From the NCBI RefSeq assembly GCF_020520425.1, contig NC_079490.1, forward strand, positions 51,686,517 to 51,750,516: a stretch of DNA of 64,000 nt, in the 5' to 3' direction. A model generated the notes under the pieces. The model had not been told where the DNA came from and did not search any database. It saw only the letters and a list, made by a program, of their open reading frames with translations. Below are positions 22,963 to 55,930 of this stretch, piece after piece. The stretch comes from Spinacia oleracea (taxonomy: Eukaryota > Streptophyta > Magnoliopsida > Caryophyllales > Amaranthaceae). The translations under genes were made by a program, and so were the position numbers. Every line of letters begins with the position of its first letter. The first letter of the stretch is position 1.

Positions 22963-24119
22963 TGTTAGGTTATGATACATATGAACAACATAAATCATGC
23001 GGAAAAACCTTAATGCCAGGAATCATATTCATTGCACATAATCATATAATTAGTCCAGGATGCATACACTTTGTAGCGTGCCCTCCCTAGCTGCGCCCGA
23101 ACCGAACAAGAACAAGTCTTTAGGACTCCAAGTGTCGTCCCTCCGTAGAAAGTCCACAGCACGTGCGGATCCGCCTTAAGCTTGACCAACTAGAATCGCC
23201 CTTAAGGTTCTTAGAATTTTCGACTATTAGGGTGCAAGTGTTTGGCTGGTTTTTTGCTTGAAAATCTTACCGTTGAATACTTGAAAACTTCTGTATAAAT
23301 TTGTGAACCTAGGCACATATTTATAGAGTCATGGAAAAGGATTTAGAATCCTATTAGGATACCAATTTGTTTAATTAGAATCTTATTAAAACTCTATTAA
23401 ACAAATTCTATCTTTATTAGGATTAGGATTTAATCATAGAACAAATTCCATTAGCTTTAGGATTTGTATTGAACACAAGCGTTGCACAAGCACGAGCACG
23501 AGCCGCACAGCCCGCGCAAGCCTTGCGGCCAACGCGAGCAGCATAGCCCGCAGCCCACGAGCTCGGCGCGCACCATGGCCTTGCTGGGCTTGGCCTTGCG
23601 CTGGGCCTGGCGAGGCTTTGCTGCGTTGTGTTGATGCACATGGCTTGCTGGATGCGGGCCTGGCTTCGTGCTGGGCCTTCGTCTAGCAAGTCTCGTCTGA
23701 TGCTAATTCGTACGATGCGCTTCCGATTAAATTCCCGATTCCGGAATTCATTTCCGATACAAACAATATTTAACATTTCCGATTCCGGAATTAATTTCCG
23801 TTTCGAACAAATATTTAATATTTCCGTTTCCGGAATTATTTTCCGATTCCGATAATATTTCCGATTCGAGCAATATTTCCGTTTCCGGCAATATTTCCGA
23901 TACGATCCATATTTCCGTTTCCGGCAACATCTACGACTTGGATAATGTTTATATTTCCGATACGATCCATATTTCCGTTTCCGGCAATATCATCGTTTCC
24001 GGAGTATTCATTTACTTGCCTTTGACGATCTCAGCTCCCACTAAAACCAAGATCCTTCGATTCCGAATATCCATAGATGGAGTATTTTTTAATGTCATTA
24101 AATACTCGATCCGTTTACG
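22963..24119 (-). repeat. Element A 3' LTR, outer segment
   Basis: Begins TGTTAGGTTATGATACATATG and runs to the insertion point of element B. It contains the 3' LTR's GC-rich block (about 23470-23700) and the TTCCG array (about 23720-24000). The rest of this LTR resumes at 34651. Confidence 0.9.
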
Positions 24120-25511
24120 TGTTAGGTTATGATTCATATGACAGTTCATAAATCATGCGGAAAAACCATAAAGCCAGGAAACATATTATTTACACATAAT
24201 CATTTAGCATAGTTTAGATGCATACTCTTTGTTGCGTGCCTTCCCTAGCTGCGCCCGAACCGAACAAGAACAAGTCTTTAGGACTCCAAGTGTCGTCCCT
24301 CCGTAGATAGTCCACAGCACGTCCGGATCCGCCTTAAGATTGACCAACTAGAATCGCCCTTAAGGTTCTAATATTTTCGGTTAGGTAGGCAAGAATATTG
24401 GCTGATTTTTCTGCTTAAAAATCTTAGTTTTGAATACTTAAAACTTGTGTATAAATAATGACCCCTAGGCCTTTATTTATAGAGTTATGGAAAAGGAATC
24501 GTAATCCTAGTAGGATACGAATTAATTGAAATTAGAATCCTACATGAATTCTATTTAATTAATTTATCCAATTAGGAATAGGAATTTAATCATACACTAA
24601 CTCTTGTAGATTTAGGAATCACGCATGAGCACAAACTCACACACACACGGCAGCCACAAGGGCTGCCCATGTGCGTGCGAGCAGCAGCCCACGCAGCGCG
24701 GCCCACGCATCCGTGGCCTTGGCGCGCGCTGGGCCTGCCTTGCGGTAGGCCTGGGCGCTGCCTTGGCTGGGCTTGTGGCGCGCGTGCTTGCTGGGCGATG
24801 GCCCGGCTTCGTGCTGGGCCTTCGTCCGGCAGGCCTCGTCCGGCAGGCCTCGTCCGATGCTAATTCGTACGATACGCTTCCGATTAAATTTCCAGTTCCG
24901 GAATTTATTTCCGATACGAACAATATTTAATATTTCCGATTCCGGAATTAATTTCCGTTTCGAACAAATATTTAATATTTCCGTTTCCGGAATTATTTTC
25001 CGATTCCGGTAATATTTCCGATTCTGACAATATTTCCGTTTCCGGCAATATTTCCGATTCTGGTAATATTTCCATTTCCAATAATATTTTCCGATACGTA
25101 CCATGTTTCCGTTTCCGGCAACATCTACGACTTGGATAATATTCATATTTCCGATACGATCCATATTTCCGTTTCCGGCAATATCATCGTTTCCGGAGTA
25201 TTCATTTCTTGCCTGTGACGATCTTAGCTCCCACTGAAACCAAGATCCGTCGGTTCCGAATATTCATAGATGGAGTATTTAATGCCATTAAATACTTGAT
25301 CCGTTTACGTACTATTTGTGTGACCCTACGGGTTCAGTCAAGAGTAAGCTGTGGATTAATATCATTAATTCCACTTGAACTGAAGCGGCCTCTAGCTAGG
25401 CATTCAGCTCACTTGATCTCACTGAATTATTAACTTGTTAATTAATACTGAACCGCATTTATTAGACTTAACATAGAATGCATACTTGGACCAAGGGCAT
25501 TATTTCCTTCA
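24120..25511 (-). repeat. Element B 3' LTR (left)
   Basis: 1392 bp, TG...CA ends. Contains the conserved CTAGCTGCGCCCGAACCG block, a GC-rich block (24655-24860) and the TTCCG array (24880-25200). Followed by GTCTCCCACTTGTCC, the complement of the polypurine tract. Confidence 0.95.
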
Positions 25512-28500
25512 GTCTCCCACTTGTCCTTAGGGACAAGTGTGCATTTCCTAATTCCTTTGTCGCTCGATGCTTGCTCTTGAACATAAGGTAAGAGTTGTCA
25601 TCCTTATTATGTCCAGAGGCGTTCCTCGGTTTCAGAGTTCAACTGATCAAATAAACAGATAATCATAGCCTATGATTCATCCGAGCACGGCCATGCATTT
25701 CACAGTTTCTAGCTCTCCGAGTGGCCTTGTACAACTTTTAAGCATCTCATCCCGATTTATGGGAGGACAATCCCAATCTTGCGATCTTGAGATTAGACTT
25801 CGTTTGATAGGTGATTACCTGAGCGTTGCCTTTATAGCCTCCTTTTACGGTGCGACGGTTGGTCAACGTCAAAGCAACCAGTTCTCAAACAAGTAATCTC
25901 AAATCACTCAGGTATTGAGGATTTAGTGTCTAATAATTTAATGAAATTTACTTATGACAGACTTTCATCTCTTACAGTAAAGTTTCATAGGTCTTGTCCG
26001 ATACTAGTCTTCCCAAAGTAAGTATCTATGCAAATGATTATGACATTGCCATGTCCACATAGTTCAAGAAACAGAACTACTAGTCATCTTGCATTCTAGT
26101 CGTCTAACGTTTTCTATGCGTCCGATTTTATAGAAAACTCCGACTAGGGACCATTTTCAACCTTTGACATTCAAGTTCACTTGATAGACATTTCTTAGTC
26201 ACAGGACTGGTCCTGACAGTCTATCTTGAATATATCGTCAAATTGAAGGGACTCATCATTTAATACTAAACCAAGATTAAATGGAATATGAAAATACATT
26301 TCATATATGATAAATGTTCAACCCCAATGTTTTACAACCATGGGCCTCAAACCCATCTTCTAAAACAGTTCATGGAATTTCAAAGCTATGCTTGATTTCC
26401 AGTGCTACAATGTAAGTGTTGCTTCTCACTTGTTGCATAGGTTTAGTTATCATGCTTTGCCAATCTTAATATCCTTTTCATCGAATGTTCTTCGAGATAG
26501 ATGATAAGATCTTTTGAGTATGTTTATTTTGTGATCTAGTCTTTCTCGCTACAATGGTGGTTCTACGCATTTCTCAATGAAGAACCATCAAGTTAGCAGA
26601 CCTTTTTCTTGCTTCAAGAGTGGTTCTACGCATTTTTCAATGAAGAACCATCAAGCCAGCAGATAGGTGATCTTCCCAAGTTCAGTGAAGAACTCTTTAA
26701 ACAACCCTGTTTTATTGCTTCTTAGGCAATAATTACTTTTACTTCAACTGTATAGGTTGCTAGTGATGCTTTGTTTGGTTTTACCTATCCAAGCAGTTCA
26801 TAGATATGTGGAAGACTCTCCAACTATATCTTAGAACATAGAAATTATTATTTTAATTTCCCACGCAACAACTCATGGTCTCCAATCCATGTTGCCATTT
26901 CAAAACACGATGCTCTATAGCTCGTCCTTATCAATGGTTAACTCCAAAGGGTCTTGCTTGATCCTTTGCCAGTGTTTATGCGTGTAGCATCAATATTTAG
27001 CATATCTTTATTTCCTTGAATTCAAGAACTATTCCTTTGTACCTTTTCAAGTACCATAAGTATTCTTGATCTCAAACTAGTTGATCTTTACTTAGATCAA
27101 TAGAGATTGGTATATGTTCGTCATTGCTAAAGTCATACAATACGTTTTTGGCGATCCTCATATTATATCATACATGATAAGTTCTTTTGCAGAATAATTC
27201 CCAATTGAATTCTATTCATGTAACTTTAGCTCATCTAGTTTCAGTAGATACTAAATCCAGCTAAATTCTTTGACATATAATATAGGTTTAAGAATCTTAC
27301 TTAGATTCTTTGATGTTTAACTTAGTAAATGCTTATACATAGTTCAAACATCCTTTACTTAGATTTATTCATATGGGTCGAATATCTCCAATGGAGTCTT
27401 TCGTGTTTGATTTAGTAAATGCCATTACTTAATCCAAAACAATATCATAAGATCTTTGTAAATAGATCTTAATATCCAGTATGTACTAAGTTTCGCCATG
27501 GTCCATCATTGATGAATAATTTCAAATCTAAGTCATTAGCATTTGAATGTTGTTTCACAATAGAGAGATATGTGTGTGATACACATAGGACCAAATAAGT
27601 TTTTATGTACTCCCACTAAACTTCTTATATATCTATAAGAATCATGTATATTTTATGAAACTAAAATACTTATTAGCTTCACTAAAATACATTTCTAATT
27701 CCCAATTGCTTGCTTTAAATCTGTACTTAGATTTTATAAACTAGCTTTCTCTTTCAAGCATTTATTTGGATCCACAAATCCTATGACATACCATGTACAT
27801 AGTTTCTTCCAACATTTGATTGAGGAATACGTTTTGTCATCCAATTGCTATATGTACCAATATGCAATCATTGCTTGAATTATAGACTTGAGCATTACGA
27901 TTATGCATGAGGTTTCAACACAATTCACACCATGAATTTGCTTGTAACCTTTAGCAACTAATCTAGCTTTGTGTGTGAACACAATTCCATGTTTGATGGT
28001 TTTTATCCTTAAAACAAACTTGCAACCAATAGGTGTGAACCTATTCTTGCAAATCAACAAAATTTCAATTTTGTCATCAAAACATTGAGTATGTTTTATG
28101 GCCTTTAACCAATTAAACATATAGTCTATATATGGCCTCTAACCATTTTAGGGAATCTGGGTTTCGTCATAGCTTTCTTACAAGTCACTTCTTTTAGTTT
28201 GACTGCAAGTTGTAGGTTTCTTTACTATCTAATAGAAGAATTGCATAGTTTCAGTGACCTGAACTCCATGTTTCTTCACTATCTAATAGAAGAATCTCAT
28301 AGTTCCAGTGACTTGAACTCTATGCCTACTTGGGTATAGAACATCAAACATTAGAATATCAATAGCCACTTAAAGTCCTTTGAATATTCTGTTCTCCTTG
28401 AAGCACTTGTAAAGTCTTCTAAGAGATGTCTATTTTTTAAAGCCACTTCTAAAGTCCTTAAAGAATAAGTTCGGATTTTCTGAAGCACTTCGAAAAGCCT

Positions 28501-31500
28501 CCGGAATTTCCGTTTATGTTTGTTGTTCGCCTCGAAGACTTTCGAGGTCTATTTTCTCCCACTTGTCATTTTGGAAACGAATCTCCAAAGGACATTATTC
28601 CGAGCAAACAAACATTATGTTCTCAAAAATTCGTGGTAGAAACAATACCCTTGTGTCTCATTAGAATAAATCACAATGAAACATATATCTAGACTTGGGC
28701 CTTAGTTTGTCGAATGACAAACACTAAGCTCCCACTGAGTTTTGCAACTCTCTAGATATTTTATGAAAAGTTATTCTGAAATTACTTTTCAAAAGCTTTG
28801 ACGAATTTGGTTTAGTTTGGTGGTAGTTGAGCATTTTGTTTTAGAAATTATAGGAAAAGTCTTTATGATTCATCATTGATCGAATCAAGTACTAATCGAC
28901 TTCGATCATTCCAACTTAGATATGCCATATCTTATGGACCTAGATTGTGAAATTACAACACACAATCATTGATGATCATATTTGGTCTCAAGTAATCATC
29001 AACATGATCTAACCTAGATCTTTATGATTTCTTGCCAAGTGGATTTTATACTTCTGAATCTTTGAACTAGCCAAACAGATTCAACTTATATCACATTTGA
29101 GTAAATAAACCTATATTCACTCAAATCCATGTGAAATAATAAAGTCATAAAATCTTTCTTTAGCTTTGAACTCTATTGTCTAGGCGTTCTAACAATAGTT
29201 CATATCTTTTGTTACTTTCAACAAGTAAGACTAGTCGTCTTAAATTGATCTAGAAATCAATGAACTTTCAAAAGTCCATCAAAATAGAGCTTTTGAAGTT
29301 TAACTTATTGATATGGTCTAAGCAACAATGCCAAAGATTAGTGGAACTCAAATCAAGGGTTTGATTTGAACCTTAGTAAAGTTCTTTAAAGAGTTGTTTG
29401 TTTTAATCAAGCATATTGACTCAACCTGTAATTGACCATTTCATTCAAATAAACAAACAAACATTGTTTTTGTTCTTCTGAATGTGAGTCTTTCTGTGTT
29501 TGAAACAGAAATTTAGGTATGCTGATTATGGAACAAAGTAGCCATTAAGTTCCAGCCTTTGAAAGGACTTAAAACAAACTAGATGACCCTACAATTAATG
29601 TAGCAATGCCATGCTTCATTTCCCACTTGTAGGTCATTAGTGTATCCTAGCTTCCATTGTTTGAGTTATTACCGAAGTAAGAACCTCAAGCGGTATATGA
29701 TACCAAGGAAGTTTGATTGCTAGGTCACTTCTCTTTAAACATAAACTTATAGGTAGAAACGGAATCGTAAATTCCTTTCATTTGTTCCTCGTTTTCCTAT
29801 TTCTTGTACCCTTTCTTATAGTCTTAAGAATTGAATTCTTTAGTGTTGACTTTTATACTTTGTTAGACATGTCCAATGTCACCAACAAGGTTCTTTACCA
29901 TTTTAATTTATGTTGAATATTTTGTTTCAACTAGATGATCTTACCAGAAGCTTCTAAAGTTCTCTAAGCATCGATCTATTCGAATGTCTAGGGACTAGAC
30001 TCATTCGAGAATTAAATGGACAAAGATATTAGGTTGTTAACCATTGGTAAGGCTGAGCGTTTAAACTCAATGCTTTACGATCTCAAAACTACATTGTATT
30101 TTGAATTCACAAGCACCAATTGGTTTGCCATTCGATTTTGATATTCGAAAACAACCATAAAAGTCGCTATAAGAAACGTACACTTTAAATTGCTCACTTT
30201 CTCTCATTTCCGTGAATCGTTCTTGGATTCACTACCAATCGAGGAAATTTACTGTTACCTTTCTAAAAGGATTTATTGCAGTGCAAGATATTTAATTATA
30301 AACAATAATTAAAACATTCATTGAAGCATGCAAAGTCTAAACATTTATCATGAGTAATAACTTGAAAATGAAAGCAATCATGCAATCTAAGCAAGTCATT
30401 AGCATTTTATTCGAATTATGTGTTCCGGCAGGTGTGAATAAAATGATTCCAAGATCCTAAAATCATTGAAGAACTAAGCACAGTTTGTCGACTTAATCCT
30501 AGAATATCTTAGGTAAGCAAAAGCCTTTTGCTAATAGTCTAGAAACTATTCTTGGTTGATAGGTACGTCTAAGAACTTATTAGGTAAACCTATCGAATTT
30601 GCCACGACATAAAAGGACTCCTTACTTATATCGTTGAGTTTCACCAAAACTAACATGTACTCACAATTATTTGTGTACCTTGCCCCTTTAGGACCAATAA
30701 GTAACACCTCGCTGAGCGAAAACTATTACTAGATTGATGTAAAGGATATCCAAGCAAGTGTATATTTTGGCATGGCACCTTTTAACTCAATTTTTAAGTT
30801 TGGAACTTAAGGCTCTTACTATGTTGGTTAGATTTTAAGTGAACTAAAATCCTTAATCATGCAACATAATCAAGCTTTTGATCTCATGCATTTTAAGACA
30901 TATTTAAAACAATAAATAACTTAAAACATGCATAAGATATTTGTGATCTAGTATGGCCCGACTTCATCTTGAAGCTTTGACTTCAAAGTCCGTCTTGAAA
31001 ATCTCCGTGGGAGGCACCATTTTCTTCAAATAGGATAAGCTATAACTAATTACAACTATTTGATGGTTCGCAGACCATATTTGAATTGAAAAATAACTTT
31101 GGTACTTTAGACCAATTACATTCAAATTAATGGTACGCAGACCATATTTTCTATCCTATTTGGGCCATACTAGTCACTTCATAACCTGCAAAACAGTACA
31201 TATACAATATATACCATTCACCCATTCATTATCATGAATGGCCCACATAGCTGGTTAGTAAAACACATTATGCATCACGTAAACATTTGCAGCAATTAAT
31301 CAAGGGCACCAATAATCTACCAATTATTCAGTCCTTATTAATTCTAATCAAGTTGTTTTAACCTTAAGGATTTGTAGACCTAATCAAGAGTTTATGACTA
31401 AAAAGCGCTCCCACTTAAACCAATAAATTCATATGCTTTACCAATTTTAAACATAAAAATGTATTTCTAGTCTAACCGGAAACATACAAATTTAATTAAA

Positions 31501-31734
31501 ATTTAAAGCTCATATCAATTTATAATTGAATCCAAAAATTTAATTTAATTTCAGTCGTATTTAAATTAATTCATGATTTTAATTTTAGTAAAATAATTAG
31601 AATAAATAACATTTATTATAATTATAATATTCAAAATTAAAATCCAAGAAAATAATTCAAATTATTAATTTTAAAATTAATTAAAATTACGTGAACTGAA
31701 ATTTTCAAATTAAACATTCAAAACGATCTAATCG

Positions 31735-32500
31735 TAACGCAAACACCCTACGCGTTGCACGCCCATGGACCGTACGCACACAACCATTGCTGGCCATGTG
31801 CGCGCAGCCCATGCGCTCGTCGCATAGCTGCTGCTTCCCTATCGCAAGCCTCCGCACGCATTGGTGCTCGCTGCGCGCGCCAGCGCTCATCGCACGCGAG
31901 CTATCGCTCGCAGTGCGCGCGCGCGACATCGCTCGCTGGGCGCGCGACATCGCTCGCTGGGCGCGCGAGCCATCGCTCGCTGGGCGCGCGAGCCATCGCT
32001 CGCTGGGCGCGCGACATCGCTCGCTGGGCGCGCGACATCGCTCGCTGTGCGCGCGAGCCATCGCTCGCTGGGGCGCGACATCGCTCGCTGGGCGGGCGAC
32101 ATCGCTCGCTGTGCGCGCGAGCCATCGCTCGCTGGGGCGCGACATCGCTCGCTGGGCGGGCGACATCGCGCGCTGTGCGCGCGAGTAATGCTGGGCGCAG
32201 CGCTCGTGGCACGCGAGCTTGCGCTCGCTGCGCGCGAGGCTGCGCGCTCTTGTGCGAGGCAGCGCGCGTTGTGGCGCAGCTCGCTTGCTGCCCACACGCG
32301 ACTGCCTTGGCTCGCCCTTCGCCCATGCCCATTCGTTCATTGCTCGTGGCACACGACACAAGGCAGGGCTGCTGCCTTGTGCTCGTGCACTACGCCCTTG
32401 CTCATTGCATTCGTGCCGCACGGGCGACGAGCTCCCTTGCTCGTCGTCGCATGCCCGCATTATACAACACCCCTTAAGGGTAACACGAAGCGTCCATTGC
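31735..32500 (-). repeat. GC-rich island in the element B leader
   Basis: A sharply bounded island of about 765 bp, very rich in GCGC and CGAGCG, in otherwise strongly AT-rich leader sequence. Its side nearest the 5' LTR holds a block conserved with A and C (GACGAGCTCCCTTGCTCGTC, then the palindrome CCCTTAAGGG at 32471). The overlapping long frames on both strands result from the composition and the 21-bp repeats and are not treated as genes. Confidence 0.85.
31921..32186. repeat. Twelve-unit 21-23 bp tandem array
   Basis: Twelve units of the form GACATCGCTCGCTGGGCGCGC, alternating with a two-base-longer variant that begins GAGCCATCG. The last three units repeat the previous three as a block of about 65 bp, showing higher-order duplication. 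The island of elements A and C lacks this array. Confidence 0.92.
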
Positions 32501-33253
32501 TTCGTGCGTGCAAGTTTTATGAACGAATCGCATAAAAATTTAAAATTTATATTTAAAATTAATGACAAATTAATAAATAATATTAATTTCATAATTTTAG
32601 GGCGAAAAATCGAAAATTTATTATCCAATTGATTTCCGATTGTTATGGATTCAAGTCTAGGTCATAAAAATTTAAAATTTATCGTAAATTTACAATTTTT
32701 ATGGTGGTTTTTAATCATAGGTTTCTAATTAAATTACAATTAATTATGAAAATCAAATTAATTCTAAATTATTCTAATTTTCAACAAATTAATCATAATT
32801 ACAAATTAGATTGCATAATTAACAAGACTAGGCATTCAAACTTGTTAAACATATGCAGTAGGTCAATCAAAAATTCAAGATTTATCAACAAGAATCGCAA
32901 ATATTTAATTTAACATCTTAAATTTACGAAATTTTGCATTCGAAAAACTAAAGCCTTCGAAAAGTCATAGTTAGGCTTCGAATTTGAGAATTCTGGGTTC
33001 GGCCGAAAAACACTATTTTTGTCAAAATTTTAGAATGCCTTTTACATGCGGAATTGACACAAAAATCACTCGATTTGGATGAGTAACGAAGAAACTGCCG
33101 AAAAACTGCGTACGTATAATTAAATAAACGCAATTTGCAATTAATTAACAATTACGAAAATTAATCACCCCTTTTAATTCTTGCAAATTTGTAATATTTA
33201 ACCATGTTCATGCAATTTAGATTATGAAAATAATAAGGGGCTCGTGATACCAC

Positions 33254-34645
33254 TGTTAGGTTATGATTCATATGACAGTTCATAAATCATGCGGAAAAAC
33301 CATAAAGCCAGGAAACATATTATTTACACATAATCATTTAGCATAGTTTAGATGCATACTCTTTGTTGCGTGCCTTCCCTAGCTGCGCCCGAACCGAACA
33401 AGAACAAGTCTTTAGGACTCCAAGTGTCGTCCCTCCGTAGATAGTCCACAGCACGTCCGGATCCGCCTTAAGATTGACCAACTAGAATCGCCCTTAAGGT
33501 TCTAATATTTTCGGTTAGGTAGGCAAGAATATTGGCTGATTTTTCTGCTTAAAAATCTTAGTTTTGAATACTTAAAACTTGTGTATAAATAATGACCCCT
33601 AGGCCTTTATTTATAGAGTTATGGAAAAGGAATCGTAATCCTAGTAGGATACGAATTAATTGAAATTAGAATCCTACATGAATTCTATTTAATTAATTTA
33701 TCCAATTAGGAATAGGAATTTAATCATACACTAACTCTTGTAGATTTAGGAATCACGCATGAGCACAAACTCACACACACACGGCAGCCACAAGGGCTGC
33801 CCATGCGCGTGCGAGCAGCAGCCCACGCAGCGCGGCCCACGCATCCGTGGCCTTGGCGCGCGCTGGGCCTGCCTTGCGGTAGGCCTGGGCGCTGCCTTGG
33901 CTGGGCTTGTGGCGCGCGTGCTTGCTAGGCGATGGCCCGGCTTCGTGCTGGGCCTTCGTCCGGCAGGCCTCGTCCGGCAGGCCTCGTCCGATGCTAATTC
34001 GTACGATACGCTTCCGATTAAATTTCCAGTTCCGGAATTTATTTCCGATACGAACAATATTTAATATTTCCGATTCCGGAATTAATTTCCGTTTCGAACA
34101 AATATTTAATATTTCCGTTTCCGGAATTATTTTCCGATTCCGGTAATATTTCCGATTCTGACAATATTTCCGTTTCCGGCAATATTTCCGATTCTGGTAA
34201 TATTTCCATTTCCAATAATATTTTCCGATACGTACCATGTTTCCGTTTCCGGCAACATCTACGACTTGGATAATATTCATATTTCCGATACGATCCATAT
34301 TTCCGTTTCCGGCAATATCATCGTTTCCGGAGTATTCATTTCTTGCCTGTGACGATCTTAGCTCCCACTGAAACCAAGATCCGTCGGTTCCGAATATTCA
34401 TAGATGGAGTATTTAATGCCATTAAATACTTGATCCGTTTACGTACTATTTGTGTGACCCTACGGGTTCAGTCAAGAGTAAGCTGTGGATTAATATCATT
34501 AATTCCACTTGAACTGAAGCGGCCTCTAGCTAGGCATTCAGCTCACTTGATCTCACTGAATTATTAACTTGTTAATTAATACTGAACCGCATTTATTAGA
34601 CTTAACATAGAATGCATACTTGGACCAAGGGCATTATTTCCTTCA
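33254..34645 (-). repeat. Element B 5' LTR (right)
   Basis: 1392 bp, almost identical to 24120-25511. Preceded on its left by GGCTCGTGATACCAC (33239-33253), whose complement is the primer-binding site. Directly followed by the TTACG duplication and the rest of element A's LTR. Confidence 0.95.
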
Positions 34646-34650
34646 TTACG

Positions 34651-34852
34651 TACTATTTGTGTGACCCTACGGGTTCAGTCAAGAGTAAGCTGTGGATTAA
34701 TATCATTAATTCCACTTGAATTGAAGCGGCCTCTAGCTAGGCATTCAGCTCACTTGATCTCACTGAATTATTAACTTGTTAATTAATACTGAACCGCATT
34801 TATTAGACTTAACATTAAATGCATACTTGGACCAAGGGCATTATTTCCTTTA
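34651..34852 (-). repeat. Element A 3' LTR, inner segment
   Basis: The continuation of the LTR interrupted at 24119. It starts TACTATTTGTGTGACCC and ends at the boundary with GTCTCCCACTTGTCC. The two segments sum to 1359 bp, against 1363 bp for the other LTR of A. Confidence 0.9.
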
Positions 34853-35713
34853 GTCTCCCACTTGTCCTTAGGGACAAGTGTGCATTTCCTAATTCCTTTG
34901 TCACTCGATGCTTGCTCTTGAACATAAGGTAAGAGTTGTCATCCTTATTATGTCCAGAGGTATTTCCCGGTTTCAGAGTTCAACTGGTCAAATAAACAGA
35001 TAATCATAGCCTATGATTCATCTGAGCACGACCATGCATTTTACTGTTTCTAGCTCTCCGAGTGGCCTTGTACAACTTTCAGCATCTCATCCCGATTTAT
35101 GGGAGGACAATCCCAATCTTGCGATCTTGAGATTAGACTTTGTTTGATAGGTGATTACCTGAGCGTTGCCTTTATATCCTCCTTTTACGGTGCGACGGTT
35201 GACAACGTCAAAGTAAGCAGTTCTCAAACAAGTAATCTCAAATCACTCAGGTATTGAGGATTAATGTCTAATAATTTTAATGAAATTTACTTATGACAGA
35301 TTTTCATCTCTTACAGTAAAGTTTCATAGGTCTGTCTGATACTAGTCTTCCCAAAGTAAGTATCTATGCAAATGATTACGACATTGCCATGTCCACATAG
35401 TTCAAGAAACAAAACTACTAGTCATCTTGCATTCTAGTCGTCTAACGTTTTCTATGCGTCCATCTTTATAGAAAACTCCGACCAGGGACCATTTTCAAAT
35501 TTTGACATTCAAGTTCACTTGATAGACATTTCTTAGTCACAGGACTGGTCCTGACAGTCTACCTTGAATATATTTTCAAATTGAAGGGACTCATCATTTA
35601 ATAAACCACAAATTAAATGGAAAAATGAATTCTATTCATTTATTGTGAATGACTAACCAATAATGTTTTACAAAGTATTAAACTATAAAACTTTAAAACA
35701 TTAAACTAGGACA
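34853..35713 (-). other. Element A 3' untranslated region
   Basis: About 860 bp between the RNase H end and the 3' LTR, closely similar to 25512-26300 (element B) and 39209-39990 (element C). There is no gene. Confidence 0.8.
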
Positions 35714-37090
35714 TCAAAGCCATTCTCCAATATGCTTGATTCCCATAGCTGCAGTGTGAGAGTTGTGCTTCGCCTGCGGCAAAGGTTTAGTCAATGGATC
35801 TGAGATGTTATCATCACTTCCAATCTTACTTATCTCGACTTCTTTTCTTTCAACGAACTCTCGTAGAAGGTGAAATCTACGAAGTACATGCTTGACTCTT
35901 TGGTGGTGTCTAGGCTCCTTTGCCTGTGCAATAGCTCCGTTATTATCACAATATAGAGCTATTGGTCCTTTAATGGAGGGGACTACACGAAGTTCACCTA
36001 TGAACTTCCTTAGCCATATAGCTTCTTTTGCTGCTTCATGTGCAGCAATGTACTCCGCTTCAGTTGTAGAATCCGCAATGGTGCTTTGCTTAGCACTTTT
36101 CCAGCTTACTGCCCCTCCGTTGAGGCAGAAGACAAACCCAAACTGTGATGTGAAATCATCTTTGTCGATTTGGAAACTTGCGTCCGTATAGACTTTAACA
36201 ATTAATTCAGCATCTCCACCATAGACCAGGAAATCATCTTTGTGCCTTTTCAGGTACTTCAAAATATTCTTGGCAGCAGTCCAATGTGCCTCTCTTGGGT
36301 GTGACTGGTATCTGCTCGTAGCACTGAGTGCATACGCAACATCCGGGCGTGTACATATCATAGCATACATTATTGAACCAATCAATGATGCATATGGAAT
36401 CCCACTCATTCGTCTACGCTCATCAAGTGTTTTTGGGCACTGAGTCTTGCTTAGAGTCATTCCATGAGACATGGGTAGGTAGCCTCGCTTGGAGTCTGTC
36501 ATCTTGAACCTTTCAAGCACCTTATTGATATAAGTGCTTTGACTAAGTCCAATCATCTTCTTAGATCTATCTCTGTAAATCTTGATGCCCAGTATGTACT
36601 GTGCTTCTCCTAGATCCTTCATCGAAAAACATTTCCCAAACCAAATCTTGATAGAGTTCAACATAGGAATGTAATTTCCGATAAGTAATATGTCGTCGAC
36701 ATATAATACTAGAAAAGAAATTTTTCTCCCACTGACCTTCTTGTATACACAAGATTCGTCTGCGTTCTTGATGAAACCAAAGTCACTGACTGCTTCATCA
36801 AAACGTATATTCCAGCTCCTTGGTGTCTGCTTCAATCCGTAGATTGATTTCTTAAGCTTGCATACCTTTTTAGCATTCTTTGGATCCTCAAAACCCTCAG
36901 GCTGTGTCATAAACACAGTTTTTGTTAAAACACCGTTTAAGAAAGCGGTTTTGACATCCATCTGCCATATTTCGTAATCGTAATAAGCAACGATTGCTAA
37001 CATTATCCGAATAGACTTTAGCATTGCAACTGGTGAAAAGGTTTCATCGTAATCCACACCGTGGACTTGCCTGTAACCTTTTGCAACCAA
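35714..37090 (-). pseudogene. Copia reverse transcriptase and RNase H piece (element A)
   Basis: A 458-codon piece of Ty1/copia pol. Reverse transcriptase blocks in order: VAKGYRQVHGVDYDETFSPV, WQMDVKTAFLNG, QPEGFEDP, KKSIYGLKQ, and the catalytic YVDD in LVLYVDDILLIGN. RNase H follows (VYTDASF, STTEAEYIAAHEAAKEAIW, LYCDNNGAIAQAK) and the typical end DPLTKPLPQAKH. In the living family these copy element RNA into DNA in cytoplasmic virus-like particles. It is one part of a broken element; lineage within copia is not assigned. Confidence 0.93.
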
Positions 37091-37105
37091 TCTAGCTTCG
37101 AAAAT

Positions 37106-37729
37106 TTAAAGTTTCCCATCCTTGTCTTTTTTCAGTTTGAAAACCCATTTGCTTCCTATGGCTTGGTAGCCATCTGGCAAATCGACCAAATCCCAAACTT
37201 GGTTTTCAGACATGGAGTCTAATTCTGATTGCATGGCTTCATTCCATTGCTTGGAGCTAGGGCTCGTCATAGCTTGTTTGTAAGTCGCAGGTTCATCACT
37301 TTCAAGTAATAGAACGTCATAGCTCTCGTTCGTCAAAATACCTAAGTACCTTTCCGGTTGAGATTTATATCTCTGCGATCTACGCGAGGTTACATTTCTA
37401 GATGGTCCATGATTCTCACCAGATACTTCTAAAGATCTCTGAGTTTCATCCTGAATGTCATCTTGAGCATTCTCTAGATTTTGTTGTTCGACTCGAATTT
37501 CTTCGAGGTCTACTTTTCTCTCATTTGTCATTTTGGAAATGTGATCCTTTTCCAAAAAGATACCATCTCGAGTAACAAACACCTTGTTCTCAGATGTATT
37601 GTAGAAGTAATACCCCTTTGTTTCCTTTGGATAGCCCACAAGGATACATTTGTCAGATTTTGGATGAAGTTTGTCTGAAATTAATCGTTTGACGTATACT
37701 TCACATCCCCAAATCTTAAGAAAAGACAC
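37106..37729 (-). pseudogene. Copia integrase C-terminal / linker piece (element A)
   Basis: A 207-codon piece with the copia GKLLPKS-like region (FLKIWGCEVYVKR, KCILVGYPKETKGYYFYN) and the approach to reverse transcriptase (RRSQRYKSQPERYLG, SKQWNEAMQSELDSM, GSKWVFKLKKDKDG). Part of broken element A. Confidence 0.88.
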
Positions 37730-37790
37730 ATTTGGAGCCTTTCCAAACCGTAACTCATATGGAGTCTTTTCAACAGCTTTAGACGGAGCT

Positions 37791-38507
37791 CTATATATTT
37801 ATAGTGAGTGCAGCTGTATTCAGTGCATGTCCCCAAAATTTTATTGGAAGTTCGGCCTGACCCATCATTGATCTAACCATGTCTAGCAAGGTTCTGTTCC
37901 TCCGTTCCGACGCACCGTTCCATTGTGGTGTTCCAGGAGGAGTCAATTCTGATAGAATTCCACATTCTTTCAGATGGTCATCAAATTCATAGCTCAGATA
38001 TTCACCGCCTCTGTCAGACCGCAGTGCCTTAATCTTCTTGCCTAATTGATTTTCTACTTCACTCTGAAATTCCTTGAATTTGTCAAAGGATTCAGACTTA
38101 TGCTTCATTAGGTAGACATAACCATATCTACTGAAGTCATCAGCGAAAGTGATAAAGTAGCTGAAACCACCTCTAGCATTTGTACTCATTGGTCCACATA
38201 CATCTGTATGGATTAAACCCAATAGTTCATTTGCTCTTTCTCCAACTTTAGAGAAAGGTTGCTTTGTCATTTTGCCAAGTAAACATGATTCGCATTTACC
38301 ATAATCCTCTAAGTCAAATGGTTCTAGAATTCCTTCCTTTTGAAGTCTTTCTAAACGTTTCAAGTTTATATGGCCTAATCGACAATGCCACAGATAGGTG
38401 AGATCTGAATCATCCTTTTTGGCCTTTTTGGTATTTATGTTATATACTTGTTTGTCGTGATCTAATAAATAAAGTCCATTGACTAATCTAGCAGATCCAT
38501 AAAACAT
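37791..38507 (-). pseudogene. Copia integrase core piece (element A)
   Basis: Holds the GAG-pre-integrase zinc region (HCRLGHINLKRLERL, CESCLLGKMTKQPF) and the integrase core with Asp in HTDVCGPM, Asp in LRSDRGGEYLS and Glu in WNGASERRNRTLLD. Part of broken element A, next to the insertion of element C. Confidence 0.9.
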
Positions 38508-38548
38508 CTCTTTAAAATAAAACGAACAACTATTGTCTTTTATTCCCG

Positions 38549-39208
38549 GTCCGATGCTAATTCATACGATGCGCTTCCGATTAAATTCCCGGTTCCGGAA
38601 TTCATTTCTGATACGAACAATATTTAACATTTCCGATTCCGGAATTAATTTCCGTTTCGGACAAATATTTAATATTTCCGTTTCCGGAATTATTTTCCGT
38701 TTCCGATAATATTTCCGATTCTGACAATATTTCCGTTTCCGGCAATATTTCCGATTCCGGTAATATTTCCATTTCGAATAATATTTTCCGATACGTACCA
38801 TGTTTCCGTTTCCGGCAACATCTACGACTTGGATAATATTTATATTTCCGATACGATCCATATTTCCGTTTCCGGCAATATCATCGTTTCCGGAGTATTC
38901 ATTTCTTGCTTGTGACGATCTCAGCTCCCACTGAAACCAAGATCCGTCGATTCCGAATATCCATAGATGGAGTATTTAATGCCATTAAATACTTGATCCG
39001 TTTACGTACTATTTGTGTGACCCTACGGGTTCAGTCAAGAGTAAGCTGTGGATTAATATCATTAATTCCACTTGAACTGAAGCGGCCTCTAGCTAGGCAT
39101 TCAGTTCACTTGATCTCACTGAATTATTAACTTGTTAATTAATACTGAACCGCATTTATTAGACTTAATATTATATGCATACTTGGACCAAGGGCATTAT
39201 TTCCTTCA
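38549..39208 (-). repeat. Element C 3' LTR, partial
   Basis: Starts inside the LTR at TCCGATGCTAATTC and runs through the TTCCG array to the normal inner end, followed by GTCTCCCACTTGTCC. Confidence 0.88.
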
Positions 39209-42200
39209 GTCTCCCACTTGTCCTTAGGGACAAGTGTGCATTTCCTAATTCCTTCGTCGCTCGATGCTTGCTCTTGAACATAAGGTAAGAGTTGTCATCC
39301 TTATTATGTCCAGAGGTGTTTCTCGGTTTCAGAGTTCAACTGATCAAAAAAACAGATAATCATAGCCTATGATTCATCCGAGCACGGCCATGCATTTTAC
39401 AGTTTCTAGCTCTCCGAGTGGCCTTGTACAACTTTTATCATCTCATCCCGATTTATGGGAGGACAATCCCAATCTTGTGATCTTGAGATTAGACTTCGTT
39501 TGATAGGTGATTACTTGAGCGTTGTCTTTATAGCCTGCTTTTGCGGTGGGACGGTTGGTCAACGTCAAAGCAACTAGTTCTCAAACAAGTAATCTCAAAT
39601 CACTCAGGTATTGAGGATTTAGTGTCTAATAATTTTAATGAAATTTACTTATGAAAGATTTTCATCTCTTACAGTAAAGTTTCATAGGTCTGTCCGATAC
39701 TAGTCTTTCCAAAGTAAGTATCTATGCAAATGATTACGACATTGCCATGTCCACATAGGTCAAGAAACAGAACTACTAGTCATCTTGCATTCTAGTCGTA
39801 TAACGTTTTCTATGCGTCCATCTTTATAGAAAACTCCGACCAGGGACCATTTTCAACTTTTGACATTCAAGTTCACTTGATAGACATTTCTTAGTCACAG
39901 GACTAGTCCTGACAGTCTATCTTGAATATTTCGTCAAATTGAAGGGACTAATCATTTAATACTAAACCAAGATTAAATGGAATATGAAAATACATTTCAT
40001 ATATGATAAATGTTCAACCCCTAATGTTTTACAACCATGGGCCTTGAACCCATCTTTAAAACAGTTCATGGAATTCAAAGCTATGCTTGATTTCCAGTGC
40101 TACAATGTGAGTGTTGCCTCTCACTTGTTGCATAGGTTTAGTTATCATGCTTTGCCAATCTTAATATCCTTTTCATCGAATGTTCTTCGAGATATGATGA
40201 TAAGATCTTTTGAGTATGTTTATTTTGTGATCTAGTCTTTCTTGCTACATTAGTGGTTCTACGCATTTTTGCAATGAAGAACCATTAAGTTAACAGACAT
40301 GTGATCTTCCCAAGTTCAATGAAGAACTCATTAATATAAACAACTCTGTTTGATTGCTTCTTAGGCAATAAGTACTTTTACTTCAACTGTTTAGGTTGCT
40401 AGTGATGCTTTGTTTGGATTTACTTATCCAAGCAGTTCACAGATATGTGGAATACTTTCCAGCTGTATCTTAGAACATAGAAATTAATATTTTAATTTCC
40501 CACGCAACAACTCATGGTCTCCAATCCATGTTGCCATTTCAAAACACGATGCTCTATAGCTCGTCCTTATCAATGGTTAACTCCAAAGGGTCTTGCTTGA
40601 TCCTTTGCCAGTGTTTATGCGTGTAGCATCAATATTTAGCATATCTTTATTTCCTTGAATCGAGAACTATTCCTATGTACCTTTTCAAGTACCATAAGTG
40701 TTCTTGATCTCAATCTAGTTGATCTTCACTTAGATCAATAGAGATTGGTATATGTTCGTCATGCCTAAAGTCATACGATACGTTTTTGGCGATCCTCATA
40801 TTATATCATACATGATAAATTCTTTTGCAGAATAATTCCCAATTGAATTCTATTCATGTAACTTTAGCTCATCTAGTTTCAGTAGATACTAATTCCAGCT
40901 AAATTCTTTGACATATAATATAGGTTAAGAATCTCATTTAGACTCTTTGATGTTTAACTTATTAAATGCTTATACATAGTTCAAACGTCCTTTACTTAGA
41001 TTTATTCATATGGGTCGAATATCTCCAATGGAGTCTTTCGTGTTTGATTTAGTAAATGCCATTACTTAATCCAAAACAATATCATAAGATCTTTGTAAAT
41101 AGATCTTAATACCCAGTATGTACTAAGTTTCGCCTTGGTCCATCATTGATGAATAATTTCAAACCTAAGTCATTAGCATTTGAATGTTATTTCACAATAG
41201 AGAGATATTTGTGTGATACACATAGGACCAATTAAGTTTTTATGTACTCCCACTAAACTTCTTATATATTTATAAGAATCATGTACATTTTATGAAACTA
41301 AAATACTTATTAGCTTCACTAAAATACAATTCCCAATTCCCAATTGCTTGCTTAAATCTGTACTTAGATTTCATAAGCCAGCTTTCCTTTTCAAGCATTT
41401 ATTTGGATCCACAAATCCTATGACATACCATGTACATAGTTTCTTCCAACATTTGATTGAGGAATCTTTTTTGTCATCCAATTGTCATATGTAACAATAT
41501 GTAATTATTGCTTGATTTATAGACTTGAGCATTAAGATTATGCATAAGGTTTCAACACAATCCATGCCATGAATTTGCTTGTAACCTTTAGCAACTAATC
41601 TAGCTTTGTGTGTGAACACAATTTTATGTTTGATGGTTTTTATCCTTAAAACAAACTTGCAACCAATAGGTGTGAAACTATTCTTGCAAATCAACAAAAT
41701 TTCAATTTTGTCATCAAAACATTGGTTATGTTTTATGGCCTCTAACCATTTAAAACATTTGAGTCTATATATGGCCTCTAACCATTTTAGGGAATCTGGG
41801 TTTCGTCATAGCTTTCTTACAGGTCACAAACTCATTAATCTATATGACAATATTTGACTGCAAGTTTTAGTTTTCTTCACTATCTAATAGAAGAATCTCA
41901 TAGTTTCAGTGATTTGAACTCTATGCCTACTTGGGTATAGAACATCAAACAATAGAATATCAATAGCCACTTGAAAGTCCTTTGAATATTCTGTTCTCCT
42001 TGAAGCACTTGTAAAGTCTTCTAAGAGATGTCTATTCTTTAAAAGCCACTTCTAAAGTCCTTAAAGAATACGTGTTCGGATTTTCTAAAGAACTTCGAAA
42101 AGCCTCCGGAATGTCCGTTTATGTTTGTTGTTCGCCTCGAAGACTTTCGAGGTCTATTTTCTCCCACTTGTCATTTTGGAAACGAATCTCCAAAAGGACA

Positions 42201-45200
42201 TTATTTCGAGCAAACAAACATTATGTTCTCAAAAATTCGTGGTAGAAACAATACCTTGTGTCTCATTTGAATAAATCACAACGAAACATATATCTATACT
42301 TGGGCCTTAGTTTGTCGAATGACAAACACTAAGCTCCCACTGAGTTTAGCAACTCTCTAGATATATATTATGAAAAGATATTATGAAATTACTTTTCAAT
42401 AGCTTTGACGAATTTGGTTTAGTTTGGTGTTAGTTGAGCATTTTGTTTTTAGAAATTATAGGAAAGTTCTTTATGATTCATCATTGATCGAATCAAGTAC
42501 TAATTGATTTCGATCATTCCAACTTAGATATGCCATATCTTATGGAGCTAGATCGTGAAATTACAACACACAATCATTGATGATCATATTTGGTCTTAAA
42601 GTAATCATCGACATGATCTAACTTAGATCTTTATGATTTCTTGCCAAGTGGATTTTATACTTCTGAATCTTTGAACTAGCCAAACAGATTCAAACTTATA
42701 TTACATTTGAGTAAATAAACCTATATTCACTCAAATCTATGTGAAATAATAAAGTCATAAAACCTTTCTTTAGCTTTGAACTCTATCGTCTAGGCGTTCT
42801 AACAATAGTTCATATCTTTTGTTACTTTCAACAAGTAAGACTAGCTTGTCTTGAATTGATCTAGAAATAAATCAACTTTCAAAAGTCCATCAAAATAGAG
42901 CTTATGAATGTTAACTTGTTGATATGGTCTAAACAACAATGCCAAAGTTTAGTGGAACTCAAATCAAAGGTTTGATTTGAACCTAGTAAAGTTTTTATTG
43001 TTAAAGAGTTGTTTGTTTTAATCAAGCATATTGACTCAACCCGTAAATGACCATTACATTCAAACAAACAAACAAAACATTGTTTTTGTTCTTCTATATG
43101 CGAGTCTTTCTGTGTTTGAAAACAGAAATTTAGGTATGCTGATTGTGGAAAAAAATAACCATTAAGTTCCAGCCTTTGAAAGGACTTAAAACAAACCAGA
43201 TGACCCTACAACTAATGTAGCATTGCCATGCTTCATTTCCCACTTGTAGGCCATTAGTGTATCCTAGCTTCCATTGTTTGAGTTATTACCGAAGTAAGAA
43301 CCTCAAGCGGTATATGATACCAAGGAAGTTTGATTGCTAGGTTACTTTTCTTTAAACATAAACTTATAGGTAGAAACGGAATTGTAAATTCCTTTCATTT
43401 GTTCTTGTTTTCCTATTTCTTGTACCCTTTCTAATAGCCTTAAGAATTTAATTCTTTAGTGTTGACTTTTATACTTTGTTAGACATGTCCAATGTCACCA
43501 ACAAAGTTTTTTACCATTTTAATTTATGTTGAATATTCTGTTTCAACTAGATGATCTTACCAGAAGCTTCTAAAGTTCTCTAAGCATCGATCCATTCGAA
43601 TGTCTAGGGACTAGACTCATTCGAGAATTAAATGGACAAAGATATTAGGTTGTTAACCATTGGTAAAGCTGAGCGTTTAAACTCAATGCTTTATGATCTC
43701 AAAACTACATTGTATTTTTGAATCCACAAGCACCAATCGGTTCGCCATTCGATTTTGATATTCGAAAACAACCATAAAAGTCGCTAAAAGAAACGTACAT
43801 TTTAAATTGCTCATTTTCTCTCATTTCCGTGAATCGTTCTTGGATTCATTACCAATCGAGGAAATTTACTGTTACCTTTCTAAAAGGATTTACTGCAGTG
43901 CAAGATATTTAATTATAAACAATAATTAAAACATACATTGAAGCATGCAAAGTCTAAACATTTATCATGAGTAATAACTTGAAAATTAAAGCAATCATGC
44001 AATTTAAACAAGTCATTGGCACTTTATTCGAATTTATTGTTCCGGCAGGTGTGAATAAAATGATTCCAAGACCCTAAAATCATTGAAGAATTAAGCACAT
44101 TATGATTGACTCAATTCTAAAATATTTTAGGTAAGCAAAATCCTTTTGCTAATAGTCTAGAAACTACTCTTGGTTGATAGGTACATCTAAGAACTTATTA
44201 GGAAAACCTATCGAATTTGCCACGACATAAAACGACTCCTTACTTATATCGTTGAGTTTCACCAAAACTAACATGTACTCACAATTATTTGTGTACCTTA
44301 CCCCTTTAGGACCAATAAGTAACACCTCGTTGAGAGAAAACTATTACTAGATTGATGTAAAGGATATCCAAGTAAGTGTTTATTTTGACATGGCACCTTT
44401 TAACTCAATTTTTAAGTTTGGAATTTAAGGCTCTTACTATGTTGGTTAGATTTTAAGTTAACTAAAATCCTTAATCATGCAACATAATCAAGCTTTGATC
44501 TCATGCATATTTATGACATATTTAATAGCAATAAATAACTTAAAGCATGCATAAGATAAATGTGATCTAGTATGGCCCGACTTCATCTTGAAGGTTCAAC
44601 TTAAAAGTCCGTCTTGAAAATGGATTGGAAACTCCGTCTTGAATTTCACCGTGGGAGGCGCCATTTTCTTCAAATAGGATAAGCTATAATTAAACTAATT
44701 ACAACTATTTGATGGTACGCAGACCATATTTGAATTGAAAAACAAATTTGGTACATTAGACCAATTACATTCAAATTAATGGTACGCAGACCATATTTTC
44801 TATCCTATTTGGGCCATACTAGTCACTTCATAACCTGCAAAACAGTACATATATAATATATACCATTCACCCATTCATTATCATGAATGACCCACATAAT
44901 TGGTTAGTGAAAACACATTGTATGCATCACATAAATATTTGCAGAAATTAATTAAGGCCACCAATAATCTACCAATTATTCAGTCCTTATTAATTCTAAT
45001 CAAGTTGTTTAACCTTAAAGGATTTGTAGACCTAATCAAGAGTTTATGACTAAAAATGCTCCCACTTAAACCAATAAATTCACATGCTTTACTAATTTTA
45101 AACATAAAAATGTATTTCTAGTCTAACCGAAAACATACAAATTTAATTAAAATTTAAAGCTCATATAAATTTATAATCAAATCCATTAATTTAATTTATT

Positions 45201-46529
45201 TTAGTTGAATTAAACGAATTTAAATTAATTCAAGATTTAATTTTAATAAAATAATTAGTATAAATAAAATTTATAATAATTATAATATTCAAAATTAAAA
45301 TCCGAGAAAACAATTTAAATTACGAATTTTAAAATTAATTAAAATCGTTTCCAAACTGAAAATTAAAATTTAAATTCAAAGCGCATCAATCGGGTCAAGA
45401 CGAGGCCATGGGCTTGCGCCCATGCCCCGTCGAGTCCACGAGGCAGCATCGCCCCTCACGAGTGATCGCACAGCAAGGCACGAGCAGCAGCCACGCGCAA
45501 ACACAGCAAGCCAAGCCACGCTTGCGCGCAGCATTGCTCGCTGGCTTCGTAGCGCAGCAGCTGCTTGGCGAGGCAGGGCGAGGCAGCGCTCGTGCTGCGA
45601 GGCACCCCTCGCTGCCCACGCGCGCCCCTGCCATCACTCGCTCGACTTGCTTCTTCGCCCATCCGCCCATGCATCATCGCAGCACTCGACGCAAGGCAGG
45701 GCTGCTGCCTTGTGCTCGCGTGCTACTTGCCTTGCTCGCTGCATTCGTACCGCATGGGCGACGAGCTCCCTTGCTCGTCGTCGCATGCCCGCACTATACA
45801 ACACCCCTTAAGGGTAACACGTAGCGTCCATTGCTTTGTGCGTGCAAGTTTTATGAGCGAATTGCATAAAAATTAAAACTTTTATTTCCAAAATTAATAA
45901 CAAATTAATAAATCATATTAATTTCATAATTTTAGGGCGAAAAATCGAAAATTTATTAATCAATTAATTTCCGATTAACATGGATTCAAGTCTAGGTGAT
46001 AAAAATTTGAAATTTAACACAAATTAACAATTTTTATGGTGGTTTTTAATCATTGGTACCTAATTAAATTATTAATTAATTATGAAAATCAAATTAATTC
46101 TAAATTATTCGAATTTCAACAAATTAACCATAATTACAAATTAGGTTGTATAATTAACAAGGCTAGGCATTCAAACTTGTTAAACATATACAGTAGGTCA
46201 ATAAAAGATTCAAGATTTATCAACAAGAATCGCAAATATTTAATTGAACATCTTAAATTTACAAACTTTTGCGTTCGAAAAACTAAAACCTCCGAAAAGT
46301 CATAGTTAGGCTTCGAATTTGGGAATTCTGGGTTTCGACGAAAAATATTATTTTTGTCAAAATTTTAGAATGCCTTTTACATGCGGAATTGACACAAAAA
46401 TCACGCAATTTGCAATTAATTAACAATTACGAAAATTAATCACCCCTTTTAATTCCTTGCAAATTTGTAATATTTAACCATGTTTATGCAATTTAGATTA
46501 TGAAAATAATAAGAGGCCCGTGATACCAC
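39209..46529 (-). mobile_element. Element C internal region
   Basis: 7.3 kb, AT-rich and decayed, collinear with 25512-33253 of element B, with many shared blocks (for example CGTTTTTGGCGATCCTCATA near 27144 and 40780). It contains the leader and primer site (complement of 46515-46529). No gene is supported. Confidence 0.85.
45395..45830 (-). repeat. GC-rich island in the element C leader
   Basis: About 435 bp of GC-rich sequence in AT-rich surroundings, ending towards the 5' LTR in the conserved GACGAGCTCCCTTGCTCGTC and CCCTTAAGGG block (palindrome near 45808). It lacks the 21-bp array of element B. Confidence 0.85.
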
Positions 46530-53140: not shown

Positions 53141-53364
53141 CGCAAATTGATGATGATAATAGTCAACCAACACTTGCGATATCTTTCTTTAGGGGACCAA
53201 CAGAGAAAGAACAGGTGATTCCAGAAGACATCTATTTTGAAGCTTTAGAAACTAAAGATGGCGTTACATCATCAATGGTTGTTTGTTCATTTACCTGCTA
53301 CTAAAATAAACTACTTTTTTCCATAACAGATAAATTACTAAGTTGGACTAATATATATTTATAA
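53141..53364 (+). repeat. 224-bp exon-like repeat, copy 1
   Basis: About 98% identical to 63777-64000. It contains an open stretch of 45 codons (QIDDDNSQPTLAISFFRGPT, EKEQVIPEDIYFEALETKDG, VTSSM) bounded by possible splice sites: a TTTCTTTAG acceptor (about 53193) and ATG/GTTTGT-type donors after 53278. Between copies I count three amino-acid changes, one synonymous change, and no break. I do not recognise the family. Confidence 0.7.
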
Positions 53365-55915: not shown

Positions 55916-55930
55916 GCACTGTGCAAATAG

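What the first reader, a model, noticed from the sequence alone, without database searches (positions are those of the whole stretch)
24120..34645. Very young but coding-dead copia element (B): trans-mobilised non-autonomous lineage
Seen: 1392-bp LTRs with only two visible differences, a perfect TTACG duplication, intact primer site and polypurine tract, and a 7.7-kb interior with no substantial coding frame. Element C has the same decayed interior collinearly but is older (LTRs about 2.5% apart). The decay therefore predates both insertions and belongs to the lineage. Inference: B was moved by proteins of an autonomous relative such as the A family, with which it shares LTR, leader and 3' region.
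Basis: partly seen in the sequence, partly recalled or inferred. Interest (0 to 1): 0.8.

Follow-up and report, generated by a model that had tools for sequence, protein, structure and literature searches.

The report
Young jump by coding-dead copia retrotransposon
This is a recently inserted plant jumping gene whose own protein genes died long before it jumped, so it must have been moved by another element's proteins; much of its control sequence matches a neighbouring element with recognisable genes, a known kind of parasitism seen here clearly.

Summary
Element B (24120-34645, minus strand) has 1392-bp LTRs with 2 differences, a perfect TTACG duplication, primer site, purine tract and no conserved open frame. 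It sits in the 3' LTR of older element A (22963-52468, ACCTA duplication), whose other LTR shows the empty site. Element C, nested in A's gag, carries B's dead 4-kb coding block (95% identical). In the readable islands, 16 of B's 16 stops and frameshifts have the same state in C by the B-C alignment (12 of 16 when C is aligned independently). So death preceded both insertions, and B moved in trans.

The noncoding parts are not clearly slower than the dead block between B and C. Best reading: a dead coding block from another copia branch that shares ends with the A family through recombination. Wheat RLC_Angela is the closest precedent: new member of a known kind. No genome was available to count copies or name the species.

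The parts
33254..34645 (-). B 5' LTR (1392 bp; TATAAA at LTR position 1031)
24120..25511 (-). B 3' LTR; 2 of 1392 differences from the 5' LTR
24115..24119 (.). target site duplication TTACG, left copy
34646..34650 (.). target site duplication TTACG, right copy
33240..33252 (-). B primer binding site (starts TGGTATCA; initiator-Met tRNA type is recalled); same letters in A, one base different in C
25512..25539 (-). B polypurine tract AAGTGGGAGAC with a perfect 9-bp hairpin overlapping it; same letters in A, B and C
30396..33253 (-). B long untranslated leader (2.9 kb); alignable with A and C except around the GC-rich array
31903..32185 (-). GC-rich tandem array in B's leader (21-bp unit, 12.4 copies at 31919-32184); cause of the 318-aa spurious frame
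26338..30395 (-). B dead gag-pol block; relics of the SH3-like domain (28520-28711) and reverse transcriptase (27415-27970)
25512..26337 (-). B 3' untranslated region, 93% identical to A, 96% to C
38549..47922 (-). Element C, same dead lineage; 5' LTR 46530-47922, 3' LTR truncated to 38549-39208; nested in A's gag
22963..52468 (-). Element A, host of both nests: 5' LTR 51106-52468, 3' LTR 34651-34850 plus 22963-24119, flanked by ACCTA on both sides
47923..48473 (-). A gag, N-terminal part (Retrotran_gag_2, E 1.4e-6); in-frame ATG at about 48401 (counted by hand); interrupted by C
35714..38561 (-). A pol in three frames: GAG-pre-integrase, integrase core, SH3-like, RVT_2 (E 7.2e-61); itself now broken

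Best explanation
B is a young insertion of a non-autonomous copia lineage. Its gag-pol block comes from a copia branch distinct from A's and lost coding function before B and C separated. It has kept, or re-acquired by template switching in shared particles, working noncoding parts (LTR termini, distal U3, primer site, leader, 3' region, purine tract) of the family to which autonomous-type element A belongs. Its RNA was made from its own LTR, packaged in particles built from a relative's Gag, reverse transcribed and integrated by that relative's enzymes, leaving TTACG on both sides in A's 3' LTR. Shown: the insertion, its recency relative to A and C, death before both insertions, and the mosaic. 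Inferred: transcription, packaging, the A family as donor of proteins, and template switching as the exchange route.
For: Insertion anatomy and duplication; the joined 80-base site aligns to A's other LTR over 72 bases at 94%, without gaps. LTR differences A 43 of 1354, C 17 of 660, B 2 of 1392 fit the nesting order. B lesions in the readable islands: 6 of 6 stops are stops in C, and 10 of 10 frameshifts have no B-C indel within 12 columns. Aligner control: 0 false frameshifts in 12 of 12 synthetic intact genes at 48% aa identity (these genes had no stops by construction). B-C differences by codon position 5/7/7 in 187 codons, A-B 81/63/102 in 230; 27 of 28 B-C indels in the block are not multiples of three. 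Ratio of A's distance to (B,C) over the B-C distance: pol 13.9 (bootstrap 11.6-17.0); LTR first 660 bp 1.05, rest of LTR 1.02, gag-side leader 1.01, PBS-side leader 1.29, 3' region 2.07. A-B identity is 0.89 and then 0.47 in the last two leader windows before A's gag ATG, where B-C is 0.89 and 0.95.
Against: Only three elements, one locus, no genome. LTR positions about 700-1100 are strongly diverged between B and A (windows 0.56-0.74), so B does not share A's whole promoter region, and over the rest of the LTR C is nearer to A than to B (K 0.188, 0.260). A is itself broken and older, so it is a relative of the donor at best. Called lesions depend on the aligner: B's frameshifts are 13, 10, 3 and 2 at penalties 10, 14, 20, 26, though stops plus frameshifts stay at 17, 16, 14 and 13; sharing with C was tested at penalty 14 only. 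When C is aligned independently, 8 of 10 frameshifts and 4 of 6 stops fall on the same residue, and four one-base B-C indels lie inside the two islands, the nearest 16 columns from a B frameshift. C shows 2 stops and 2 frameshifts not shared with B in the longer stretch aligned there. Direction of exchange is unknown.
Confidence: 0.78

Rival explanations
1. B and C are ordinary decayed copies of the A family; no exchange took place, the coding region simply decayed.
For: Same order of parts, same purine tract and nearly the same primer site; pol block still detectably homologous to A; A-C likeness runs about 75 bases into A's pol end in one aligned piece.
Against: Under one common history the pol block should be about as far from A as the leader is. 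It is not: K 0.64 against 0.07-0.15, and B-C show the dead block evolving no faster than the leader (0.046 against 0.07-0.11).
Confidence: 0.1
2. The noncoding ends are alike because selection holds them, not because they recombined.
For: They carry the signals a parasite must keep.
Against: Between B and C the ends are not clearly more conserved than the dead block: LTR first 660 bp 0.047, leader 0.070-0.109, 3' region 0.037, block 0.046. Selection strong enough to hold A-B at 0.05-0.14 while the block went to 0.64 should have slowed B-C too.
Confidence: 0.12
3. B is not young: its LTRs were made alike by gene conversion or by an assembly or polishing artefact.
For: LTR identity alone cannot tell; no reads or other accessions available.
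Against: B lies inside A's 3' LTR and must be younger than A (43 of 1354 differences); the duplication is still perfect; the two LTR copies do differ at two sites, so they are not a plain copy of one consensus.
Confidence: 0.07
4. B was moved by an autonomous family other than A's, for example living relatives of B's own pol branch.
For: A's insertion is older (43 of 1354 against 2 of 1392); B's promoter-proximal LTR part is unlike A's.
Against: LTR termini, primer site and purine tract printed for A and B agree, apart from one change in A's 3' LTR terminus, and leader and 3' region are close to A's.
Confidence: 0.3
5. The ends of A, B and C were made alike after insertion, by gene conversion between neighbours in this nest.
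For: The three copies lie within 30 kb.
Against: A is about as close to B as to adjacent C in the gag-side leader (0.074, 0.066; B-C 0.070). In the first 660 LTR bases B's two copies do not differ, so B's likeness to A there most simply predates its insertion.
Confidence: 0.07

Closest known systems
Non-autonomous RLC_Angela sub-populations of wheat (PMC9744471; section 2.6 read whole, other passages)
   Same: Copia elements similar in size to autonomous ones, with highly degenerated coding sequence (frameshifts, stops), linked to autonomous partners; trees of LTRs and of interiors disagree; authors suggest partner switching by gene conversion or template switching.
   Different: There the two kinds are over 85% identical in DNA; here the pol block is 58% identical to A's. 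There thousands of copies were used; here three.
RLG_Quinta / RLG_Cereba of einkorn wheat (PMC11302176; passages seen)
   Same: Quinta A and B lineages have gag about 65% identical inside flanks over 90% identical, read as recombination; non-autonomous partner shares primer site and LTR ends.
   Different: Gypsy, and Quinta keeps an intact gag; B encodes nothing recognisable as intact.
SNRE of soybean, LTR swapping (Du et al. 2010; not held; title and SNRE seen in passages of the TARE1 paper PMC3701649; the partner name SARE is recalled)
   Same: Autonomous/non-autonomous pair; partnership strengthened by exchange of LTRs, by the title.
   Different: Details could not be checked.
BARE2 on BARE1 of barley (PMC3735527; passages seen)
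   Same: Copia element that cannot make Gag, with its RNA found in the partner's particles.
   Different: BARE2 has a specific gag defect; B's whole coding block is dead and distant from A's.
LARDs such as Sukkula (PMC7215508 passages seen; primary paper not held); Dasheng/RIRE2 (not held; named in passages of PMC3701649)
   Same: LTR elements without coding capacity, assumed to be complemented in trans.
   Different: LARDs are described as lacking gag and pol domains; B retains recognisable pol relics.
Non-autonomous grass pararetroviruses (PMC5491270; abstract seen)
   Same: Defective and competent elements share noncoding regulatory sequence kept alike by region-specific recombination.
   Different: Different kind of element.

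Membership tests
Ty1/copia LTR retrotransposon | Two LTRs, 5-bp target duplication, primer site, purine tract | tested here: met
Ty1/copia LTR retrotransposon | Copia-type reverse transcriptase (RVT_2) with integrase upstream of it | tested here: inconclusive
   Met in A: order integrase, SH3-like, RVT_2. In B only an RVT_2 relic, 28.1 bits against cut-off 31.6; integrase not detectable by protein alignment, though a short nucleotide match to A's integrase region is found (61 bases of B, E 5.7e-4; C 118 bases, E 3.6e-6).
Non-autonomous, trans-mobilised LTR element | Recent insertion | tested here: met
   2 of 1392 LTR differences, nested in older A
Non-autonomous, trans-mobilised LTR element | Coding loss older than the insertion and shared by other copies | tested here: met
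   16 of 16 B lesions in readable islands shared with C by the B-C alignment; 12 of 16 by independent alignment
Non-autonomous, trans-mobilised LTR element | RNA packaged in partner particles | not testable with these tools
   needs particle RNA
Non-autonomous, trans-mobilised LTR element | Many copies with the same defect | tested here: inconclusive
   two copies in the window; no genome held; viral and bacterial collections gave no match
LARD (strict sense: no gag or pol sequence inside) | Interior without coding-derived sequence | tested here: not met
   RT and SH3-like relics in B and C
Angela lineage of copia | Placement of reverse transcriptase in a tree with named lineages | not tested
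   no reference plant copia sequences obtained; the one relative search (viral contigs) found none

The most novel reading that the evidence does not exclude
A copia coding block that has been dead for longer than the age of its current regulatory ends survives as a passenger: the dead lineage renewed its distal U3, leader and 3' region by recombination with an autonomous family whose pol is of a different branch, so its helper could change while its own genes rotted.
Probability: 0.5. Interest if true: 0.5.

Novelty: new member of a known kind. Interest (0 to 1): 0.36.

Why it matters
One 30-kb nest holds an autonomous-type element and two jumps of a dead one, so the order of events can be read directly. 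The contrast between a coding block in which A stands 13.9 times further off than B and C do from each other, and ends in which it stands 1.0-2.1 times further off, gives a simple test for exchange between parasite and helper that could be run on whole genomes. It does not overturn anything: partner switching by LTR exchange is already proposed for wheat (PMC9744471).

Tried and rejected
Genome search: no genome is held. A 29-base LTR pattern in viral and bacterial collections: 0 matches each. Relatives of A's reverse transcriptase in viral contigs: none. tRNA and Rfam scans of the window: nothing. Literal LTR and purine-tract strings in papers: none. A spinach origin was a guess from memory; the paper search for it settled nothing and I do not claim a species. 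The 318-aa frame was considered as a gag and rejected (no Pfam match; frames scattered in C and A).

Dating the death of the block on the stem before B and C split, in substitutions per site: 10 shared frameshifts give 0.10 (0.05-0.19) and 6 shared stops 0.30 (0.11-0.65); all lesions together give 0.12-0.14 at four aligner penalties, lower limits 0.06-0.08. At strict penalties the frameshifts alone (2-3) would give far less than 0.10, and the rate of indels is itself taken from B-C, so this is rough. The chassis split, as half of A-B or A-C, is about 0.023-0.04 per branch in the LTR first 660 bp, gag-side leader and 3' region, and 0.068-0.073 in the PBS-side leader; for the last the margin is small. 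Years: B about 55,000-103,000 with rates 1.3e-8 and 7e-9, which are recalled; Poisson limits 6,700-371,000; the species is unknown. A tree of copia lineages was not possible without references.
Full report
Observation. The finding's coordinates are exact. The two LTRs (24120-25511, 33254-34645) are 1392 bp, ungapped, with two transitions. TTACG flanks both sides. The primer site lies beside 33253 and the purine tract beside 25512, so B reads on the minus strand. The purine tract has the same letters in A, B and C; the 13-base primer site is the same in A and B and differs at one base in C.

Nest. A is one element, 22963-52468, with ACCTA on both sides. Its 3' LTR is split by B, its gag by C. 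A's gag N-terminus (47923-48473, Retrotran_gag_2) and pol (35714-38561: GAG-pre-integrase, integrase core, SH3-like, RVT_2) are recognisable but now broken (pol in three separate frames). C's 3' LTR is cut at 38549 and meets A's pol directly, so a deletion took the end of C's LTR and, by inference, the middle of A. B's joined target site aligns with A's other LTR over 72 of 80 bases at 94% without a gap, which is the empty site. LTR differences are 43 of 1354 for A, 17 of 660 for C, 2 of 1392 for B; by nesting B and C must both be younger than A, and they are.

Coding state. In B's 4.06-kb block the longest open frame is 96 aa, as in shuffled sequence. A 318-aa frame in the leader is a by-product of a GC-rich tandem array. 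Relics of pol are present: a 96-aa frame matches RVT_2 at E 1.9e-6, below the curated cut-off. A's SH3-like and RT parts align to B and C with scores 106-220 against 32-36 for one shuffled protein each, whereas the integrase part does not (28 and 29 against 32 and 29); a short nucleotide match in the integrase region is found. In the islands B has 6 stops and 10 frameshifts. By the B-C alignment, 6 of 6 stops are stops in C and 10 of 10 frameshifts have no B-C indel within 12 columns. Against this: when C is aligned independently, 4 of 6 stops and 8 of 10 frameshifts are called at the same residue, and there are four one-base B-C indels inside the two islands. C, aligned over a longer SH3-side stretch, shares 7 of 9 stops and 11 of 13 frameshifts with B. 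Twelve of 12 synthetic intact genes at similar divergence gave no frameshift. B-C differences by codon position are 5, 7, 7 over 187 codons, whereas A-B are 81, 63, 102 over 230, an old trace of selection. In the block 27 of 28 B-C indels are not multiples of three. The block was therefore once a gene, was dead before B and C parted, and both later inserted.

Mosaic. K2P distances for A-B, A-C, B-C are: LTR first 660 bp 0.047, 0.052, 0.047; rest of LTR 0.342, 0.188, 0.260; PBS-side leader 0.136, 0.145, 0.109; gag-side leader 0.074, 0.066, 0.070; 3' region 0.073, 0.080, 0.037; pol block 0.638, 0.635, 0.046. The array region between the two leader parts was left out of this table; B and C are only 57% identical there. 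The ratio of A's distance to the B-C distance is 13.9 (11.6-17.0) in pol and 1.0-2.1 elsewhere. The pol alignment is real but distant: 58% against 43-45% in 5 shuffles. A-B identity is 0.89 or more in the last eight full windows of the leader, then 0.47 in the final window, which covers about 100 bases before A's gag ATG and in which B-C is 0.95 (ATG at about 48401, counted by hand). On the other side strong A-B likeness begins at 35673, 41 bases beyond A's last pol frame; A-C likeness runs on to 35791, inside that frame. Selection on the ends does not explain this well, since B-C ends are not clearly more conserved than the dead block. Local conversion in the nest does not explain it either: A is about as close to B as to C beside it, and B's two LTR copies do not differ in the first 660 bases. 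Recombination between lineages, most simply template switching in shared particles, remains. The middle of the LTR (about 700-1100) is diverged in all pairs, and over the rest of the LTR C is nearer A than B, a further sign of mosaicism and a caution against saying that B has A's promoter. It lies at and upstream of a TATAAA found at 1001, 1031 and 1032 in A, B and C; A and C have a second one near 365, B does not.

Mechanism. Transcription from its own LTR, packaging by a relative's Gag, reverse transcription and integration by that relative's enzymes are inferred from the cis parts, the dead genes and the fresh insertion. The A family is a reasonable donor family, but A is older than B and broken, so a living member or another family with like ends did the work.

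Known context. Wheat RLC_Angela is close to this: full-size copia elements with degenerated coding sequence, LTR and interior trees that disagree, and suggested partner switching (PMC9744471, section 2.6 read, passages of the rest). Quinta lineages show a diverged gag in flanks over 90% identical (PMC11302176, passages). BARE2 RNA is packaged in BARE1 particles (PMC3735527, passages). ONSEN copies recombine pairwise during bursts (PMC5668417, abstract), and distantly related Athila elements have recombined into new lineages (PMC2410132, abstract). The case is thus a new member of a known kind. My literature searches were not a test of whether this family is in print.

Noticed in passing
60879-62924: Tandem array of a 171-bp unit, 12.1 copies, 85% matches: satellite-like.
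   Followed up: no
3978-6329: Open frame of 783 aa with PPR repeats, E motif and a full-length DYW deaminase domain match: a likely organelle RNA-editing factor gene (role recalled).
   Followed up: no
113-2903: Frames matching the NAM-associated C-terminal domain (113-1174) and Plant_tran transposase (2358-2903) near each other: probably a PIF/Harbinger-type DNA transposon (type recalled).
   Followed up: no
54946-55968: Minus-strand frame with zf-RVT and RNase H-like (RVT_3) domains: remnant of a non-LTR retrotransposon (type recalled).
   Followed up: no
25518-25539: Perfect 9-bp hairpin with 4-base loop whose 3' arm overlaps the purine tract; same letters in A, B and C; fold z-score -3.5, 0 of 200 shuffles as stable.
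   Followed up: partly
31919-32184: Leader tandem array is larger in B (12.4 copies of 21 bp) than the related one in A (3.0 copies of 20 bp at 50063-50120); B and C align poorly there.
   Followed up: partly
53141-53364 and 63777-64000: 224-bp repeat, 97.8% identical, outside the copia nest.
   Followed up: no
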